From contig JABJKS010000089.1 in the NCBI GenBank assembly GCA_018660265.1, positions 62,001 through 126,000 on the forward strand: DNA of 64,000 nucleotides, in the 5' to 3' direction. Each line of letters begins with the position of its first letter. The stretch's first letter is position 1. Made by a program: the position numbers and the translations under genes. Below are positions 43,310 through 54,253 of the stretch, piece by piece. The DNA is from Rhodospirillaceae bacterium (lineage in GTDB: Bacteria > Pseudomonadota > Alphaproteobacteria > GCA-2731375). Below the pieces are notes generated by a model. The model was given only the letters and a program-made list of their open reading frames with translations. It was not told where the DNA came from and searched no databases.

Positions 43310-44731
43310 ATGCAAGCCGAATTGGAAGCCGTCCTGAAGCGGGAAATTCCCAGGTGTCAGGCACTGATATCAGCTGAACGCCTCTCAGGCGGGGCCAGTC
43401 AGGAAACCTATCGTTTAACCATTCGGGAGTCGGATGGCGGCGATAGGCTGTTGGCCCTGCGTAGAGCGCCTGGTGGACACGATGAGGGCCGGGTCTCCTA
43501 CTATCCGGGCCTGGCAGCGGAAGCATTGTTGATGCAGTCCGCCAAAGCCGCAGGCGTGCCTGAGCCTGAGGTTTTTTATGTTCTGAAAGACCGCGACGGC
43601 CTGGGCAACGGTTTCATCATGTCCTGGTTAGAGGGGGAGGCGCTGGGCGCGCGGATCGTCCGCTCCCCCGACTTGGCGGAGATACGGCCAAAACTGGCCT
43701 ACGAATGCGGCCAGATCCTGGCCCGTATTCATGCCATTGACCTAAAGGCCACCGGCCTTGATCAGTGCCTGTCCCGGTTAAGCCCGGAAGAATACGTGCA
43801 CAATACCTGGGATCGCTACAAGGCATTTAACACGCCGCAACCCATGATCGATTATACGGGACGGTGGTTGTTGGATCATTTGCCCGATGTGGGTGCGGAA
43901 GCGTTGGTGCACAACGATTTTCGCAACGGCAATTTAATGATTTCCCCAAAAGGCGTGGTCGCCGTGTTGGATTGGGAGGTGGCCCATATTGGCGATCCGA
44001 TGCGGGATCTGGGCTGGATTTGCACCAATTCCTGGCGCTTTGGCCGTACCGACCTAGCCGTGGGCGGGTTCGGTACTTACGATGATTTGTTTGCCGGCTA
44101 TCAATCCGTGTCGGGACAGGTAGTAGATCCCCAGCGGGTGAAATTTTGGGAAGTGTTCGGGTCTTTCTGGTGGGCCATTGGTTGTCTAGGCATGGCGGAC
44201 CATTACCGCACGGGTCCCGATGCCTCGGTCGAGCGTCCGGCCATTGGTCGGCGCAGTTCCGAATGTCAAGTGGATTGCGTCAATCTGCTGATCCCAGGGC
44301 CGGTCGAATTGGTCTCGGAGCCTGACAGTACGAACGACGAGATGCCCCGGAACGATGAACTGTTGATCAGCGTGCGTAATTTTCTGCATGGCGACGTGAT
44401 GGCAGAGACAGAAGGGCGGACAAATTTCATGGCCCGGGTGGCCGGTAATTCCCTGGATATCGTCCTGCGCGATCAAGCCCTGGGGCCGGCGCATCGCCAC
44501 CTGGAACGGCAACGCCTGAACGCATTGTTCGTCGCAGACGACAGCCTGGAAAATTTACGCTGGCGCCTGGTCAATGGACTACGCCTGGGCGAAATGGCCC
44601 TTGATCATCCCGGCCTGGCACATCATCTACGCCAGACCGTGGTCAACCAGATCGCCATAGATCAACCAAAATACTCCGGCTTCAAGACGGCATTGGGTCA
44701 CAATACCTCCGAACGCTCTAGGTTCCGGTAA
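43310..44731 (+). CDS. APH-like phosphotransferase family protein with a C-terminal extra domain
   Basis: 473 residues. The aminoglycoside phosphotransferase/choline-kinase fold covers about 1-330: the catalytic loop is ALVHNDFRNGNLMI (around 200-210), and AVLDWEVAHIGDPMRDLGW has the Mg-binding Asp. The C-terminal ~120 residues are a helical domain (NFLHGDVM to HHLRQTVVNQIA) seen after phosphotransferases linked to acyl-CoA dehydrogenases (DUF6285-like). It probably phosphorylates a hydroxyacyl or related small metabolite rather than an antibiotic. It overlaps the crotonase gene by 14 bp tail to tail. Confidence 0.85.
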   Translation: MQAELEAVLKREIPRCQALISAERLSGGASQETYRLTIRESDGGDRLLALRRAPGGHDEGRVSYYPGLAAEALLMQSAKAAGVPEPEVFYVLKDRDGLGNGFIMSWLEGEALGARIVRSPDLAEIRPKLAYECGQILARIHAIDLKATGLDQCLSRLSPEEYVHNTWDRYKAFNTPQPMIDYTGRWLLDHLPDVGAEALVHNDFRNGNLMISPKGVVAVLDWEVAHIGDPMRDLGWICTNSWRFGRTDLAVGGFGTYDDLFAGYQSVSGQVVDPQRVKFWEVFGSFWWAIGCLGMADHYRTGPDASVERPAIGRRSSECQVDCVNLLIPGPVELVSEPDSTNDEMPRNDELLISVRNFLHGDVMAETEGRTNFMARVAGNSLDIVLRDQALGPAHRHLERQRLNALFVADDSLENLRWRLVNGLRLGEMALDHPGLAHHLRQTVVNQIAIDQPKYSGFKTALGHNTSERSRFR

Positions 44732-45518
44732 ACTTCGCGGGACGTTTTTCGACGAAGGCCGCCAGGCCCTCCTTGGCGTCGTTGGTCTTGCCCAGTTCCA
44801 CATTCACCGTCTTAAAATCCGCCACCGCAGTATCAAAGCCCTTTTCGATATACTTGCGGGAATTGGCAATGGTCGCCTTCACCGCCAAGGGTGCCTGGGC
44901 GCAGATTTTTTCCGCCAGTTCAATCGCCCGGTCCAGCTGCTGGCCCGTGGGCACCACTTCCTGGATATAGTTGAAGCGCAGCGCCGTTGCCGCATCGAAC
45001 TCATCGTCCGTCAACAAATACCGCATGGCATTGCCGTAACCGGCGCGCTGGACCATACGGATGGTCGCACCCCCCGTGGCCATCAGGTTGCGCTGTACTT
45101 CCAGTTGAGAAAAACGGCAGTCCTCAGCCGCGATAACGATATCGCAGGCCAGCATCAGCTCGACCCCAATGGTGTAAGTGATACCCTGAACAGCGGCGAC
45201 AATGGGCTTGCTACGGTGCGGGCCGGTAAGACCGAAACAATCGATATTGCCCTCGCCATAGATGGAGCCACCCTTGGCCCGGTGCGGTGTCATCGCCGGC
45301 ATATCCAGGCCCGCTGTGGTATGAGGCCCAACCGCATAAAGAACGCCGCATAGCAGGTCATCGTCATTTTCAAGCAAGGTATAGGCATCGCCCAGTTCCT
45401 GGCCCATTTTCGGTGTGTAGCCGTTGAATTTGTGGGGCCGGTCAACACCCATCAACAGCAACGGGCCACGGCGCTCTACATTGACGCGGCCATCCGGGTT
45501 TGAGGGATCATCTGCCAT
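44718..45518 (-). CDS. enoyl-CoA hydratase/isomerase (crotonase) family protein
   Basis: 266 residues with the crotonase fold: RPHKFNGYTPKMGQEL, TTAGLDM, ITYTIGVELMLACDIVIA. Glutamates corresponding to both hydratase acid/base residues are present, in IGVELM and FSQLEV. The oxyanion region MATGGATIRM is less typical. It is the last gene of a long leftward run that starts near 54132. Its substrate would be an acyl-CoA from that pathway. It starts 20 bp after the Abhydrolase_10-type gene. Confidence 0.87.
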   Translation of the reverse strand: MADDPSNPDGRVNVERRGPLLLMGVDRPHKFNGYTPKMGQELGDAYTLLENDDDLLCGVLYAVGPHTTAGLDMPAMTPHRAKGGSIYGEGNIDCFGLTGPHRSKPIVAAVQGITYTIGVELMLACDIVIAAEDCRFSQLEVQRNLMATGGATIRMVQRAGYGNAMRYLLTDDEFDAATALRFNYIQEVVPTGQQLDRAIELAEKICAQAPLAVKATIANSRKYIEKGFDTAVADFKTVNVELGKTNDAKEGLAAFVEKRPAKFTGT

Positions 45519-45538: not shown

Positions 45539-47488
45539 CTAGTTTGCCATGACGGCGTCATAACGCGCTGCAGCGATACCCACGCACAGGGGGATATCTT
45601 CATTCAAAAGATACCGTAACGAGACCAGGGCAGCAGCAGCGGCCTCGACCTGCCGCAAATAGTCATCCCGGTCGCCATAGCGTTCGCCGATCGAGGGGCG
45701 GGGATCGCCCGTGGCATCGCGCCCGGCCTTATCCTTGGCAAACGGTATTGTGGAACCAATATATTCCAGCAGCTGCCCCGCCCCGCCCGTATCACCATGG
45801 CGAGGGTTGAAACCTGTATGGGAGGCGACGGGCACGGCCACATCAGGCATCGGTATACCGGCGGCCTCACAGCCGTTCTCGTTCACGGTCGAAACCCAAT
45901 CAGGATAGGGTGCTGCGCCCAAAGTCGCCGGGAACAGCCCGATGCCCCGGTCCGCATCTGGTCCGAGGTCCATTGGATAAATCCAGGTCATGGCCTCCCC
46001 ATCCGGCAGGGCCAATCCTGGCGTACCGGACAATGCGGCCATCACGTCCGCGCGTGAGCCGCGACGATCTTTGTTGGGATATGAACTACCGGGCGGGGCG
46101 ACATCGTCCCTTACCCAGATCAGCAGGTTCGCCAGGGCTGCGCGGTACAGGGGGCGATAGTCGACTATATTCATATAATTCTGGCCATGACTGCCAAACA
46201 TGGTGCGCCGGGCCAGTACGGCGACACCTGGCCCGTGCTGGGTTGAGGCGAATAGATAGCGGCGCACATTGTCGGGCAGCTCCGCATCCCCACCTGTATC
46301 CAGATCGCAATGGCTTAACCCCGCATCACCGCGCCAATATTCCGAAGAGGTGTCGGTATAGATGATCTTAGGCATGCCGCCCTTGGCGATCTGACGATCA
46401 AACAGACCCTCGATCTTCTCACTCAAAGGATCGGTCTGGGGCAGATCGGCGAACGGAAACTGATGGCCAAACGACGGCGTCGGCTGGACCGAAGGCTGGG
46501 CATAACGGTGGTTGAACTCGCCGCGCCGGCCACCGGCAATGTGCGCCAACATGCCGTCAAAGGCAGGCCGTCCCGCCTCATCCAGGTTCAGGCCGAAATA
46601 GAGATAGGTGCGTAGAAAGCGCCCGCACTGGGACTGCCCCTCCCCCACCGCATGATCGATTTCGCCGGCCGTGGGCGCGTCGGCGTCATAGCGCAGGTAG
46701 GAGGCCAGATCCCGGGTCGCCAACATGCCGGTACCAACCACGGGGCAATCGCGCGGCGTATATAGCAGGTCATAGATGCGCCCGGTCGCAAATCCGCCGT
46801 CCAGCCAGACATGGCCTGCCGCATCAAAGTGCCATGTGGCCCTGTCAATAACCTCCGCCGCACCATATACACCGTCGCGCACCATCAGGGCGGCATCAGG
46901 CTCGTTGTTATCAGCGGCAATAATCAGTTGGTGGCGTCCCAGATCGCCCACATGCTGATCCGTCAATGGCAGGCTGTCGCAGGCCGCATTTACTTGCAGG
47001 CGCAACTGCATTTGGCTCGCGGGTCGGCGTGCCTCTATTGGCACCTGTGGCGGCATCAGGCCGATGCGCATACGTTCGGGCGTACGGGGCACATCCCACT
47101 GCCAGCCGGCCCAGGCCACAGTCCAGCCATGTTCGAAAAGGAAACCGTCACCGGCAGCGATATCGGCGGAATTATCCGTGGTCATGGGGGATTGATTGAA
47201 CCGCGCCAGCACCCGCTTGCCCCGGTTCGGCACCTGCATCAACAAGGCCCTGTTACCCTGCCTCACCAGCAAAGGCCGCAGGATGGTCACATCGCCGCTG
47301 TAGTGAACCAGGCCGTCATTGTCGCGGGGTGCAAGATCCAGATCCACCACACCGGCGTTGGCCGCATGCAACGGATCTGCCGTGTAGTGAGCGATAGCCT
47401 CTATCCGCTCATACGGGCCGACAGCGCCAAACGATTGGCCATTTTCATAGGGTTCACGGGACAAAATCTCAAGACGGGACAACGGCAT
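45539..47488 (-). CDS. Abhydrolase_10-type alpha/beta hydrolase
   Basis: 649 residues. VGPYERIEAIAHYTADP at the start is the usual N-terminus of the family annotated as alpha/beta hydrolase domain (Abhydrolase_10). The nucleophile is Ser286 in GEGQSQCGRFLRT. A catalytic Asp and His would lie in the C-terminal half, near DTSSEYWRGD and NHRY or ASTQHG. No signal peptide is visible. The enzymes are probable esterases of large substrates. It follows the paralogue gene by 5 bp and precedes the crotonase by 20 bp, so it belongs to the same transcription unit. Confidence 0.82.
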   Translation of the reverse strand: MPLSRLEILSREPYENGQSFGAVGPYERIEAIAHYTADPLHAANAGVVDLDLAPRDNDGLVHYSGDVTILRPLLVRQGNRALLMQVPNRGKRVLARFNQSPMTTDNSADIAAGDGFLFEHGWTVAWAGWQWDVPRTPERMRIGLMPPQVPIEARRPASQMQLRLQVNAACDSLPLTDQHVGDLGRHQLIIAADNNEPDAALMVRDGVYGAAEVIDRATWHFDAAGHVWLDGGFATGRIYDLLYTPRDCPVVGTGMLATRDLASYLRYDADAPTAGEIDHAVGEGQSQCGRFLRTYLYFGLNLDEAGRPAFDGMLAHIAGGRRGEFNHRYAQPSVQPTPSFGHQFPFADLPQTDPLSEKIEGLFDRQIAKGGMPKIIYTDTSSEYWRGDAGLSHCDLDTGGDAELPDNVRRYLFASTQHGPGVAVLARRTMFGSHGQNYMNIVDYRPLYRAALANLLIWVRDDVAPPGSSYPNKDRRGSRADVMAALSGTPGLALPDGEAMTWIYPMDLGPDADRGIGLFPATLGAAPYPDWVSTVNENGCEAAGIPMPDVAVPVASHTGFNPRHGDTGGAGQLLEYIGSTIPFAKDKAGRDATGDPRPSIGERYGDRDDYLRQVEAAAAALVSLRYLLNEDIPLCVGIAAARYDAVMAN

Positions 47489-49926: not shown

Positions 49927-50445
49927 CTACAGCTCGATAGCAGCCTTTAGCCCGTTGCTTGCAGTATCAATGCGCTCTGCCAGCTCCTCAGCATTCAGGC
50001 CGCCAATGGGATGCTTCACGACAATGACGTGAGGGTCCATTTTGCGCGCCTTGGCCTGGGCCTGTACCAAAGGCAGGAAAGTATCGGTGGTCAGGATAAA
50101 ATTGGTAACGCCGCGTTTTTCAAGTTCGATGCTGTCATGGAAACTCCACGACGAACATGCCCCTCAATCCGCTATAGCGAGGATCGCGGCCCTGTACTTG
50201 CCGGCCAATTCGTCATACATCCCATCAGCCGCCGGCTGGGCCGGGCTGTCCTTCAGGGTATAATCAATATTGTCCGTATTGCGATAGGCGCTCATCTTCG
50301 AACGCATGCCTTCGAGCAATTCTTTCGCATTAGGCTTGGAATTAGAAAACAGAATGATAGGATCCTTGCTCCAATCGACGGAGTTGGCGGCAACCTGTTC
50401 GTTGCTTGGGGCTTCTTCGCCAAAGGATGGATTGACAATTCGCAT
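49927..50445 (-). CDS. UGSC-type selenoprotein with in-frame UGA (selenocysteine at residue 94)
   Basis: 172 residues if TGA at 50164-50166 is read as selenocysteine. The ATG at 50445 has AAGGGAG ahead. The start MRIVNPSFGEEA is followed by a helix-rich first half. At the TGA the protein reads U-G-A-C-S-S-W, a UGSC-like redox motif, then HDSIELEKRGVTNFILTTD, FLPLVQAQAKARKMDP and VIVVKHPIGGLNAEELAERI, ending at TAG (49927-49929). This is how UGSC family proteins continue after the redox site. Reading the TGA as stop would remove that conserved half. It is probably a thioredoxin-like-redox or selenium-dependent enzyme of unknown substrate, within the catabolic run. Confidence 0.85.
50134..50152 (-). 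ncRNA. candidate bacterial SECIS hairpin in the selenoprotein mRNA
   Basis: On the minus strand, 8 bp can pair (GTCGTGGA with TCCATGAC, one G-U wobble) around the loop GTT. The first loop base is 20 nt after the UGA, which matches the spacing of the E. coli fdhF element, whose loop also has G and U. This is inside coding sequence. Confidence 0.6.
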
Positions 50446-50515: not shown

Positions 50516-52801
50516 TTAGATGCTTTTGGGCGGCGGCGGGAAGGGCGCGGGATCCAAAAAGCGCGTCAGTACATTGCCTGTGATCTGTGCCACATTGTTT
50601 TCATAGCCATTGTGAGCCAGGCTGGAAATCCAGGCGATGGAGCCCGTAGCGAAAACCCCGCCGCCGTGTGGGCATTCAAAAAACACCATATCCGCGCGCA
50701 CATTGGGGTCATTGAAATGCGGCATGGTGGAAAGAAAATCTTCTTTAGTACGCAGCATGTCATCGCCAAAATCATCCGCCCGCGCCAAAACCAATGCATG
50801 CGCCGGGGTGCCGTCGCGGGTATCCCAACGGTCAATCTCTTCGCCAGCGGCACCATTGCCGATGGAGCCGAAATTGCCGATAGGCCCGGCCCCAATACCT
50901 GCCAAGGCAAAGGCGGCACGGGGGTCATCGGCACCGGCCTGACGCTCGTAGGGGCTGCTGTATTCGAACCCCTGGGCGGCAAATCCAATGCCCACCAACT
51001 GGTTCGGTGGCCGACCGTTGCGCCGCCACAAACCACCATATTCGCCATTGAAGGATTGGTAATATTCCCCCACCGGCGACATCCAGGCCCGGGTTCCGTC
51101 CTCGGCCCGGCGCACCTCGATCACGCCCGGCTTGTCATCGTGAAATGCAATCCGCCAGTAAAATCCATTGCCGCCCAGGTACATCAGGCGGCCGCCCTGG
51201 CTTAGATAGCGTTCGATACCATCCAGCATAGCCGTGGAATGATATTCCGGATGGCTGCCGGTCATGACGCAACGATAGGGCTGCAGTAACCCAGCGCCCT
51301 CCGTGTGCAGTTCCTCATCCGTGATGATATCGACCGGTTGGTCAATATGATCCAGCCAGGCCAGAATGTTCAGATCCGCCGGCAGACCCCAGGGCCGGTT
51401 ATCGCCCGGCTTCATATTCATCACCGGGCGCAGGCGGGAAGAATAGTGAATACCGCTGCGGTCATCGTGATTGTCGTAAAGGGAGCCGCCGACCTCCTCA
51501 TGCCGGGCCAGAAATGCGTCGTTGACCCATTCCGGATGGCCGGCACCAAATATCAGATTAGGCTGCAAACGTTGCCGGGTATTGGCATAGGCCATATAGG
51601 ATGCGGTCGGCACCAACCAGGCTACATCCGCTCTGGCCTCGCCCTTTGGCGGCAGCACAAAGAAGGGAATGCGGTCGACATCATCGCCATGATGCAAACG
51701 GGCGGCATAGACACCACTGGGCAGATCATCCGGCACGGTATAGGTAAAATCCGTCTCCCAGCCTGCATCATACAGATCATCGTGATGAAAATGGATGGCG
51801 CCATATTGCTCCGGCGCGTGACGCCAATTATGTTCGCTGCCATCCCAATTATGGCCGGTGACCCCGCGTGTGGGCAGATTAATCACCTCGCCGTGCAGGC
51901 CATGGCGGGACAGGTCCGTAATCCGGTCCGTGGAAATATCAGCGGCAAAATCCCAACAGCCTAAGATGTCGTTCGTTAAGGTTTCGGCGATGCCGGGCCC
52001 GGAAGCCGCTGCCATTTCAGCATCGGTCAGGGCACGGTTCGCAAGGCGCGGGCGATCAATCTTGCCGTTGAAATGCGCTGTGGCCCTTTCACCGCCCCCC
52101 GCTGCGAATTGAAATGGTGCCGCCGCTGCGCCTAACCCTAGACCCGATACCAGGGTTTCCGATCTTTCAACGGGGTCTGATATGACCTGATCGCCAGGGC
52201 CGGTCGCCAACGGCCGTTGCACCAACCGCGCCTGGCCGCTTGCACTATCATAACTGGCCGCGACGAATGCCCATTGTCCCCGGCGTAGAGGCACATTGGT
52301 GCTGAGCATTAGCTGCCGCCCCTGATCTTCACCGACCCTTAGGGCCAAGGCACCGGTTTCGTCCAGCAGAAGGGCAAACCCCGCGCCTGGATCATCCCAA
52401 CCGCGCCCCATGATGACCTGCCGCCGCGCACCTGGCAGTGTCGGACAAATCATAGCCTGTAGGGTAAAGCTGTGTAGCTCTGCCAAGGCCACCTGAGCAT
52501 CGACGCTGCCATGGGAACCCCGATGAATGGCCTGAAACCGACCTTCATAAGACCGCCCTGCATAAGATTGTGCAAAGGGGGCTTTAACCACCGCCTCCAA
52601 CACCCCGACGCCGTCTGGGCTGCTGTCCCCACCCGTGACCCGAACAAGGTCTGCTTCGTAGGGGCCGTCTTCATAACTACAGACTTTGAAATCCAGGCGC
52701 TGGCCGGGCCTTGCCGATATGGGATTGCAGTAACCGGTTATGGTTTTACGGCGCAGTTGGCCCTCGTCGTTAGATTTGGGGTCAGATTTGGGGGCGGACA
52801 T
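50516..52801 (-). CDS. N,N-dimethylformamidase large (beta) subunit-like protein
   Basis: 761 residues. N-terminal ITGYCNPISARPGQRLDFKV and a LamG-like stretch (about 100-260) are followed by the dimethylformamidase beta-subunit domain: VPDDLPSGVYAARLHHGDD, DIITDEELHTEGAG, VMTGSHPEYHSTAMLDGIE and GRLMYLGGNGFYW. DmfA-type enzymes hydrolyse small amides to formate/amine. The small alpha subunit gene is not adjacent, so it may act alone or on a different amide. There is a 70-bp gap to the selenoprotein downstream and 95 bp to the amidohydrolase upstream, all same-strand. Confidence 0.87.
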   Translation of the reverse strand: MSAPKSDPKSNDEGQLRRKTITGYCNPISARPGQRLDFKVCSYEDGPYEADLVRVTGGDSSPDGVGVLEAVVKAPFAQSYAGRSYEGRFQAIHRGSHGSVDAQVALAELHSFTLQAMICPTLPGARRQVIMGRGWDDPGAGFALLLDETGALALRVGEDQGRQLMLSTNVPLRRGQWAFVAASYDSASGQARLVQRPLATGPGDQVISDPVERSETLVSGLGLGAAAAPFQFAAGGGERATAHFNGKIDRPRLANRALTDAEMAAASGPGIAETLTNDILGCWDFAADISTDRITDLSRHGLHGEVINLPTRGVTGHNWDGSEHNWRHAPEQYGAIHFHHDDLYDAGWETDFTYTVPDDLPSGVYAARLHHGDDVDRIPFFVLPPKGEARADVAWLVPTASYMAYANTRQRLQPNLIFGAGHPEWVNDAFLARHEEVGGSLYDNHDDRSGIHYSSRLRPVMNMKPGDNRPWGLPADLNILAWLDHIDQPVDIITDEELHTEGAGLLQPYRCVMTGSHPEYHSTAMLDGIERYLSQGGRLMYLGGNGFYWRIAFHDDKPGVIEVRRAEDGTRAWMSPVGEYYQSFNGEYGGLWRRNGRPPNQLVGIGFAAQGFEYSSPYERQAGADDPRAAFALAGIGAGPIGNFGSIGNGAAGEEIDRWDTRDGTPAHALVLARADDFGDDMLRTKEDFLSTMPHFNDPNVRADMVFFECPHGGGVFATGSIAWISSLAHNGYENNVAQITGNVLTRFLDPAPFPPPPKSI

Positions 52802-52896: not shown

Positions 52897-54132
52897 TTAC
52901 GCCATATCATTTTTCAAGATCACGCCGCCTTTCAAAATCAAGGACAAAGCTTCGCCTTGGCCGTCCAGGCAGGAAATGTCCTCCAGGGGATTGCCGCGCA
53001 CGGCGATCAAATCGGCATAGGCACCAGATGCAACGACGCCCAGCTCACCCTCCATATTTAGCAATTTGGCATTTTGAGAGGTGGCGGAGCGTAATACATC
53101 CACCTCCGGCATGACCTGGGCGCGGATGACGAACTCGTTCGATTGATCTTTGTGCATACCGCCCAGCAAATCCGTGCCAAGGCCGATATTGACCCCCATT
53201 TCGTGGGCCAAGGCCAAAGCTTCCAGCCCCTGGATCCTGACATCATCCACCTTGGCCACGCTGACGGGCGGCAGGCCATAGTCGGCCCCATATTTATGCA
53301 GTGAGTTGTAGGTCACCAGGGTCGGCACCAGCCAGGCATCCTTTTCCCGCATCAACTCCAAGCTGGCACGATCGATCAGATTGCCATGTTCGATGGAGCG
53401 CACGCCCAGGCGTACACAGCGGGAAATAGCTTCCGGGGTGTAGGCATGCGCCATGACATAAGTACGCCAGGATGTCGCCTCCCACACGGCAGCTGCAATC
53501 TCCTCCTCGGAATATTGCAAATTCCAGATGGGATCGGTGGGGGAGGCCACCCCGCCCGAAGCCATGATCTTGATCTGGGTGGCACCCCGGCGCAATTCCG
53601 TACGCGCGGCCTTTCGCACTTCGTCGACGCCATCAGCAATGGCGGTAAATTGCGCGCTGGGCAGGCAGCATTGGCAGCCTTCCCAATCATAGACCCGGGG
53701 ACGGCTGTCACCATGGCCGCCTGTCTGGCTAAGCACCCGCCCGGAATAAAACAGTCTGGGCCCGGCGATCAGGCCTTCCTCAATCGCCATGGCCATGCCC
53801 CAATCAGCGCCGCCCGCATCCCGCACTGCGGTAAAGCCCCGCTGCAACATCCCCTCGGCGATGCGCCCACCCCGCATGGCGGTCAACGAAGCGGGATCAT
53901 TGCCGATACTGCCCAAATCAGCGGTGGTCGCGATCAAATGCACATGGGCATCGATCAACCCCGGCATCAACACCTGGCCGCCCAGGTCAATCACCTGATC
54001 ACCCTTGGGTACGACACCCCCCTGGCCGACCTCCTTGATGCGATCATCCTCAATCACAACATAGGTATCGTCCACAAGGTCGGGGGATTGCCCATCGAAA
54101 AGCAAGGCGTTGTGCAGCACCGTCAGGGTCAT
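52897..54132 (-). CDS. metal-dependent amidohydrolase (imidazolonepropionase-like)
   Basis: 411 residues from the ATG at 54132, with GGAG 7 bases ahead. An ATG at 54144 gives four more residues. Metal-binding motifs: GLIDAHVHL (HxH), the lysine region TQIKIMASGG, MAHAY, SIEHGN and GLGTDLLGG with the final Asp. The family includes prolidase-type, imidazolonepropionase and cyclic-amide hydrolases. It leads the leftward catabolic run and is divergent from the cupin gene, with 121 bp between them. Hydrolysis of a C-N or lactone/lactam bond is the likely role. Confidence 0.88.
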   Translation of the reverse strand: MTLTVLHNALLFDGQSPDLVDDTYVVIEDDRIKEVGQGGVVPKGDQVIDLGGQVLMPGLIDAHVHLIATTADLGSIGNDPASLTAMRGGRIAEGMLQRGFTAVRDAGGADWGMAMAIEEGLIAGPRLFYSGRVLSQTGGHGDSRPRVYDWEGCQCCLPSAQFTAIADGVDEVRKAARTELRRGATQIKIMASGGVASPTDPIWNLQYSEEEIAAAVWEATSWRTYVMAHAYTPEAISRCVRLGVRSIEHGNLIDRASLELMREKDAWLVPTLVTYNSLHKYGADYGLPPVSVAKVDDVRIQGLEALALAHEMGVNIGLGTDLLGGMHKDQSNEFVIRAQVMPEVDVLRSATSQNAKLLNMEGELGVVASGAYADLIAVRGNPLEDISCLDGQGEALSLILKGGVILKNDMA

Positions 54133-54253
54133 TGTACTCTCCATATAATATTGCGGTTAGCTTTCGCGACAATTTCGAAACGGTCAAGCGGGAAAAAAAC
54201 TGGCATGGCGGGAAACCCCTGATTACAGTCAGGGTCAAGTTTTGGAGCCTTTC

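What the first reader, a model, noticed from the sequence alone, without database searches (positions are those of the whole stretch)
49927..50445. In-frame UGA read as selenocysteine in a UGSC-type protein
Standard gene calling stops at 50164-50166 and leaves a 93-codon stub. The reading frame continues for 78 codons to TAG with a UGAC motif, HDSIELEKRG and HPIGGLNAEEL, in the order known for UGSC family proteins described from marine metagenomes. The motif here is U-G-A-C rather than UGSC. The downstream half has no other in-frame stop and looks conserved. This is a probable selenoprotein in an alphaproteobacterium, located in a catabolic operon rather than a formate dehydrogenase locus.
Basis: partly seen in the sequence, partly recalled or inferred. 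Interest (0 to 1): 0.85.

Follow-up and report, generated by a model that had tools for sequence, protein, structure and literature searches.

The report
Selenoprotein reductase subunit with unannotated partner
The gene really does read a UGA stop codon as selenocysteine, and its protein (a 'UGSC' family selenoprotein) is almost always encoded beside or fused to an unnamed partner protein, which gives a concrete, testable idea of what this common but unexplained selenoprotein family does.

Summary
The gene lies on the minus strand (50445-49927), with TGA as codon 94 and TAG as the stop. It matches Pfam UGSC (PF24696, 110 bits). The genome encodes selA, selB, selC (tRNA-Sec) and selD. All 80 of the nearest named relatives keep TGA there. 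A textbook bacterial SECIS hairpin follows it, with four of five degenerate hairpin codons invariant in 81 sequences. Coding downstream of the TGA is under purifying selection. UGAC instead of UGSC is a minor variant of one ancient subfamily.

New here: the next two genes (o361, o325), with no Pfam and no significant NCBIfam or PDB match, are paralogs of the domain fused to other UGSC proteins. In 385 alphaproteobacterial genomes this partner occurs in exactly the 38 that have UGSC; 99 of 103 UGSC genes have it adjacent or fused. A thioredoxin-reductase-like flavoprotein is often in the operon. UGSC is remotely homologous to the Sec domain of GrdB/PrdB (glycine/D-proline reductases). Best reading: the Sec subunit of a family of NAD(P)H-driven substrate reductases, with six paralogs in this genome. 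The recoding is close to certain; the enzymatic role is inferred.

The parts
49927..50445 (-). UGSC-family selenoprotein gene, 172 aa with Sec94 (motif U-G-A-C)
50164..50166 (-). in-frame TGA (Sec codon 94)
   Evidence: TGA in 80 of 80 nearest named relatives
50119..50166 (-). bacterial SECIS element: 8-bp upper stem (hairpin 50152-50134), GUU apical loop (50144-50142), 19 nt between UGA and loop, MFE -17.8 kcal/mol
   Evidence: constraints from PMC13188914
48747..49832 (-). o361, partner protein type A (361 aa, no Pfam); invariant H119, H126, C128, C150, C194
47494..48471 (-). o325, partner protein type B (325 aa), paralog of o361 (32.5% identical)
50516..52801 (-). DMFA2_C protein (N,N-dimethylformamidase beta-like C-terminus plus Laminin_G_3), 761 aa, 70 nt upstream of UGSC; near clade only
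45539..47488 (-). Abhydrolase_10 protein, 649 aa, its start close to the end of o325
44718..45518 (-). crotonase/enoyl-CoA hydratase family protein
52897..54144 (-). amidohydrolase (Xaa-Pro dipeptidase-like), probable first gene of the operon

Best explanation
The gene encodes a selenoprotein: UGA94 is decoded as Sec by SelB and tRNA-Sec under the direction of the SECIS hairpin just downstream (shown, as far as sequence can show it). The protein is the small catalytic subunit of a multi-subunit reductase whose other parts are the o361/o325 proteins encoded next to it. By remote homology to the Sec domain of GrdB/PrdB, Sec94 probably attacks an electrophilic atom of a substrate held by o361/o325; Cys97 (UxxC) then resolves the bond to a selenenyl sulfide, and a thioredoxin-reductase-like flavoprotein, or another thiol donor, re-reduces it with NAD(P)H. 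Each of the six paralogs in this genome would serve a different substrate; in the window the substrate is prepared or processed by the amidohydrolase, DMFA2-like, alpha/beta-hydrolase and crotonase proteins of the operon. Shown: recoding machinery, SECIS, conservation, partner linkage, remote homology. Inferred: complex formation, chemistry, electron donor, substrate class.
For: Sec decoding: all four sel genes in the genome. TGA in 80 of 80 near relatives and in 99 of 103 family members, with Cys at that position in the other four. In a 385-genome sample selA is present in 34 of 35 genomes with Sec-type UGSC against 22 of 350 others, Fisher p=1e-32. The SECIS hairpin meets all four published constraints; 96 of 99 Sec members meet them against 24% of synonymous recodings; hairpin codons TCG, AGT, TTC and GAC are invariant in 81 sequences, while none of 68 other conserved degenerate codons is. 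Module: partner found in exactly the same 38 of 385 genomes as UGSC and the same 4 of 299 in a second sample; adjacent or fused in 99 of 103; UGSC-o361-o325 together in 76 of 80 named loci. TrxR-like gene directly upstream in about 54-58 of 80 named loci, with CxxCDG in 53 of 54, and downstream in fused types, one of them in this genome. Homology to GrdB/PrdB-like Sec proteins: hhalign Prob 91%, E=1.1e-6, Sec columns aligned; best of 59 shuffled controls scored 21 against 46.7. The model is a Rossmann-like alpha/beta fold with U94 at the start of a helix.
Against: No protein-level data. No TrxR-like gene was found beside this gene in the window, so its electron donor must be encoded elsewhere. 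Four of 103 UGSC genes have no adjacent partner, and one of 80 near relatives (L159) has none despite 4.4 kb of downstream sequence. The o361 model has no confident PDB match, so substrate binding is a guess. The GrdB/PrdB link is remote; with the narrow subfamily alignment hhalign gave only Prob 4.5%.
Confidence: 0.65

Rival explanations
1. The gene ends at the TGA: a 93-residue protein, with the downstream frame a relic or a sequencing error.
For: Standard gene calling stops there; TGA is an ordinary stop elsewhere in this operon (o361 ends in TGA).
Against: TGA at the same codon in 80 of 80 relatives; low dN/dS after the TGA; SECIS with invariant synonymous codons; Cys in the homologs of G326 and G363, genomes with no selA match.
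Confidence: 0.02
2. UGSC is a stand-alone thioredoxin-like thiol oxidoreductase for general redox or detoxification, as suggested in 2008 (PMC2398784), and its linkage to o361/o325 only reflects shared inheritance.
For: UxxC motif; the 2008 paper calls the fold likely Trx-like; TrxR-like neighbours.
Against: The predicted fold is a Rossmann-like doubly wound sheet; the partner was not found in any sampled genome without UGSC, and it is upstream, downstream or fused in different subfamilies, which shared inheritance alone does not predict; alignment to the GrdB/PrdB Sec domain.
Confidence: 0.15
3. UGSC-o361-o325 is not a reductase of small substrates but a selenium- or sulfur-transfer or assembly module.
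For: Rossmann-like subunit with UxxC; five invariant Cys/His in the type A partner could bind a metal or cluster; weak Foldseek likeness to class I fumarase (E 1.6e-3, TM about 0.25).
Against: Neighbouring genes vary by subfamily and look catabolic (amidohydrolase, hydrolase, crotonase, SDR and others), which fits many substrates better than one housekeeping transfer.
Confidence: 0.15

Closest known systems
UGSC-containing selenoprotein family (Pfam PF24696, NCBIfam NF041046; PMC2398784)
   Same: Same family over residues 3-163; Sec at the same place; a fusion with an 'Unknown_1' domain was already noted in 2008.
   Different: Motif UGAC; below the NCBIfam equivalog cut-off; stand-alone UGSC with two partner genes instead of a fusion. 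The constant linkage to the partner was not found described in the papers read.
GrdB/PrdB selenoproteins of glycine and D-proline reductase (Pfam PF07355)
   Same: Remote homology of the Sec domain with Sec columns aligned; UxxC motif, UxxCxxC in many paralogs; TrxR-like gene in many operons.
   Different: UGSC proteins do not match PF07355 itself; o361/o325 match no known reductase subunit; neighbours are not glycine or proline reductase genes.
Thioredoxin reductase (CxxCDG type)
   Same: A TrxR-like flavoprotein lies next to UGSC in most near relatives.
   Different: Not encoded next to this gene in the window; its role as donor is inferred.

Membership tests
Bacterial selenoprotein | In-frame UGA conserved at a Sec/Cys position in homologs | tested here: met
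Bacterial selenoprotein | selA, selB, selC and selD in the genome | tested here: met
Bacterial selenoprotein | bSECIS: loop 3-9 nt with G in its first two positions, stem 4-16 bp, spacing 16-37 nt, MFE <= -7.5 | tested here: met
   loop GUU, 8 bp, 19 nt, -17.8 kcal/mol; no Rfam SECIS model matches
Bacterial selenoprotein | Selenium in the purified protein | not testable with these tools
   needs 75Se labelling or mass spectrometry
UGSC family (Pfam PF24696) | Score over Pfam gathering cut-off (25 bits) | tested here: met
   110 bits
UGSC family (NCBIfam NF041046 equivalog) | Score over equivalog cut-off (125 bits) | tested here: not met
   111.6 bits: a divergent subfamily, not filed as this equivalog
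UGSC family | Literal motif U-G-S-C | tested here: not met
   UGAC here, in the six nearest named relatives and in two same-genus genomes; UGSC in the other 74 of the same subfamily; clade support 1.0
GrdB/PrdB family (PF07355) | Sequence match to PF07355 | tested here: not met
   no match among 65 members at E<=10; only remote profile-profile homology
Thioredoxin fold | beta-alpha-beta-alpha-beta-beta-alpha topology | tested here: inconclusive
   AlphaFold model (pLDDT 81) is a doubly wound alpha/beta fold; a model of the Cys version, not a solved structure

The most novel reading that the evidence does not exclude
UGSC plus the unannotated o361/o325 family is a whole new class of Sec-dependent reductases, related to glycine/proline reductase but used by diverse, probably non-fermenting alphaproteobacteria, with many paralogs per genome each acting on a different environmental compound.
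Probability: 0.45. Interest if true: 0.8.

Novelty: new variant of a known kind. Interest (0 to 1): 0.6.

Why it matters
UGSC proteins are among the most abundant selenoproteins in aquatic metagenomes (PMC2398784) and have had no known function since 2008. A partner family that always co-occurs, a recurrent TrxR-like neighbour and a link to GrdB/PrdB turn 'unknown redox protein' into a defined complex that can be expressed and assayed. It also means that standard gene calling would truncate six such genes in this one genome.

Tried and rejected
Sequence search of the PDB with UGSC or its partner gave nothing significant. Foldseek/VIA on the partner gave only weak, local likenesses (class I fumarase, cyclic amide hydrolase, chorismate mutase), not used as evidence of fold. 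Rfam has no matching SECIS family. hhalign of the narrow UGSC alignment against PrdB-like proteins was inconclusive; only the family-wide alignment gave a clear result. Synonymous-codon entropy over the whole stretch 95-104 was only marginal (Mann-Whitney p=0.07); the signal is confined to hairpin codons 99-104, a sub-range chosen after the fold was known. A Fisher test used wrong counts and was redone.

Full report
OBSERVATION. The gene runs on the minus strand from ATG at 50445 (AAGGGAG just upstream) to TAG at 49929-49927, with TGA at 50166-50164 as codon 94. Reading TGA as Sec gives 172 residues. Pfam UGSC (PF24696) matches residues 3-163 with 110 bits, E=1.8e-31, across the TGA. NCBIfam's NF041046 matches at 111.6 bits but under its equivalog cut-off of 125.

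MACHINERY. The same assembly (5.5 Mb, 97% complete) holds tRNA-Sec (66 bits; ARAGORN SeC, anticodon TCA), selA (579 bits) next to selB (431 bits), and selD (391 bits), the last with an in-frame TGA of its own. In 385 genomes of the class, selA over its cut-off is present in 34 of the 35 that have Sec-type UGSC genes (the exception is a 77%-complete assembly) and in 22 of 350 others; two of the three genomes with only Cys-type members lack it (Fisher p=1e-32, not corrected for relatedness of the genomes).

CONSERVATION. A scan of named genomes with the subfamily alignment returned 80 loci; one of its two search patterns could only match a Cys codon at this point, yet all 80 carry TGA at codon 94. 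Across the family in the class, 99 of 103 members have one TGA at this point and four have Cys. Against 12 relatives dN/dS after the TGA is 0.07-0.19, about as low as before it. UGAC occurs here, in the six nearest named relatives and in two same-genus genomes; the rest of the same well-supported subfamily has UGSC, so the motif difference is a single Ser/Ala exchange, not another family.

SECIS. The 48 nt from the UGA fold at -17.8 kcal/mol, z=-2.4, into a stem with an 8-bp top and a GUU loop 19 nt after the UGA. This meets all four constraints of the published bacterial model (PMC13188914). 96 of 99 Sec-type family members meet the model, against 24% of synonymous recodings of the same stretches and 23% of other positions in the same genes. 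In 81 subfamily sequences the hairpin codons TCG (Ser), AGT (Ser), TTC (Phe) and GAC (Asp) never vary; the only varying degenerate codon, CAC/CAT, swaps a G-C for a G-U pair. None of 68 other conserved degenerate codons in the gene is invariant.

PARTNER. The two genes after UGSC, o361 and o325, have no Pfam match and no significant NCBIfam or PDB match. They are paralogs (32.5% identical), and both match the roughly 350-residue domain fused C-terminally to about 24 other UGSC proteins. This is probably the 'Unknown_1' fusion noted in 2008, though that alignment was not available to compare. A profile of the partner hits exactly the 38 of 385 genomes that have UGSC and none of the other 347 (p=2e-53), and exactly the same 4 of 299 in a second, partly overlapping sample. 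In 99 of 103 places it is adjacent (upstream or downstream by subfamily) or fused; in three of the four exceptions the genome has a partner gene on another contig, and the fourth lies at a contig end. In the named loci UGSC, o361 and o325 occur together in 76 of 80; two exceptions end within about 100 nt, and one (L159) really lacks the pair downstream. Type A partners have invariant H119, H126, C128, C150 and C194; type B lacks the first three, suggesting one catalytic or metal-binding and one supporting copy (inference).

REDOX CONTEXT. In most near relatives (54-58 of 80) the gene directly upstream encodes a TrxR-like flavoprotein (Pyr_redox_2), with CxxCDG in 53 of 54. Fused-type UGSC operons carry a TrxR-like gene downstream, including one in this genome. 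In eight named loci a SelB gene lies about 2 kb upstream. The window clade instead has an amidohydrolase, a DMFA2_C protein, Abhydrolase_10 and a crotonase in the same operon.

HOMOLOGY AND FOLD. The model of UGSC (pLDDT 81) is a five-strand Rossmann-like alpha/beta fold with U94 at the start of a helix, not the thioredoxin-like fold suggested earlier; matches at this Z are to a common architecture, so this shows the fold type only. Profile comparison of the whole UGSC family with GrdB/PrdB-like proteins, most of them Sec-type, from the same class gave Prob 91%, E=1.1e-6, with Sec on Sec; the best of 59 column shuffles scored 21 against 46.7.

PARALOGS. The genome has six UGSC genes, each with one in-frame TGA, in six separate clades of the family tree shared with 5 to 21 genomes (support 0.62 to 1.0). 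It also has six GrdB/PrdB-like matches; four were examined and carry an in-frame TGA at the Sec position. With selD this makes it a selenoprotein-rich alphaproteobacterium.

CONCLUSION. Sec decoding is about as certain as sequence can make it. The function proposed, a Sec-dependent substrate reductase of the GrdB/PrdB kind whose substrate subunit is the o361/o325 family, is the best-supported explanation but has no biochemical evidence yet.

Noticed in passing
G000 contigs C84, C51, C31, C7, C4 (loci L243, L259, L264, L266 examined): Six further GrdB/PrdB-like matches in this genome; the four examined carry an in-frame TGA in a U-P-x-C/D motif and would be truncated by standard gene calling.
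   Followed up: partly
G000 C31:57158-58084 (L018) and C97:58106-59017 (L019): Two selD genes: one with an in-frame TGA, one inside a long 787-aa frame, possibly an Ndh-SelD fusion.
   Followed up: no
L230 1532-3412 and seven other named loci: selB lies about 2 kb upstream of the UGSC operon; selA or selB lie within about 8 kb of UGSC genes in G091, G123, G341 and G057.
   Followed up: partly
L165, L168, L174, L175, L177, L178: Some relatives appear to carry three partner genes in a row after UGSC.
   Followed up: no
G195 C146, G080 C72, G065 C119: Three Sec-type UGSC genes without an adjacent partner; a partner gene is on another contig of each genome.
   Followed up: partly
window 43310-44731 +: APH-type phosphotransferase fused to DUF6285, convergent with the operon.
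   Followed up: no
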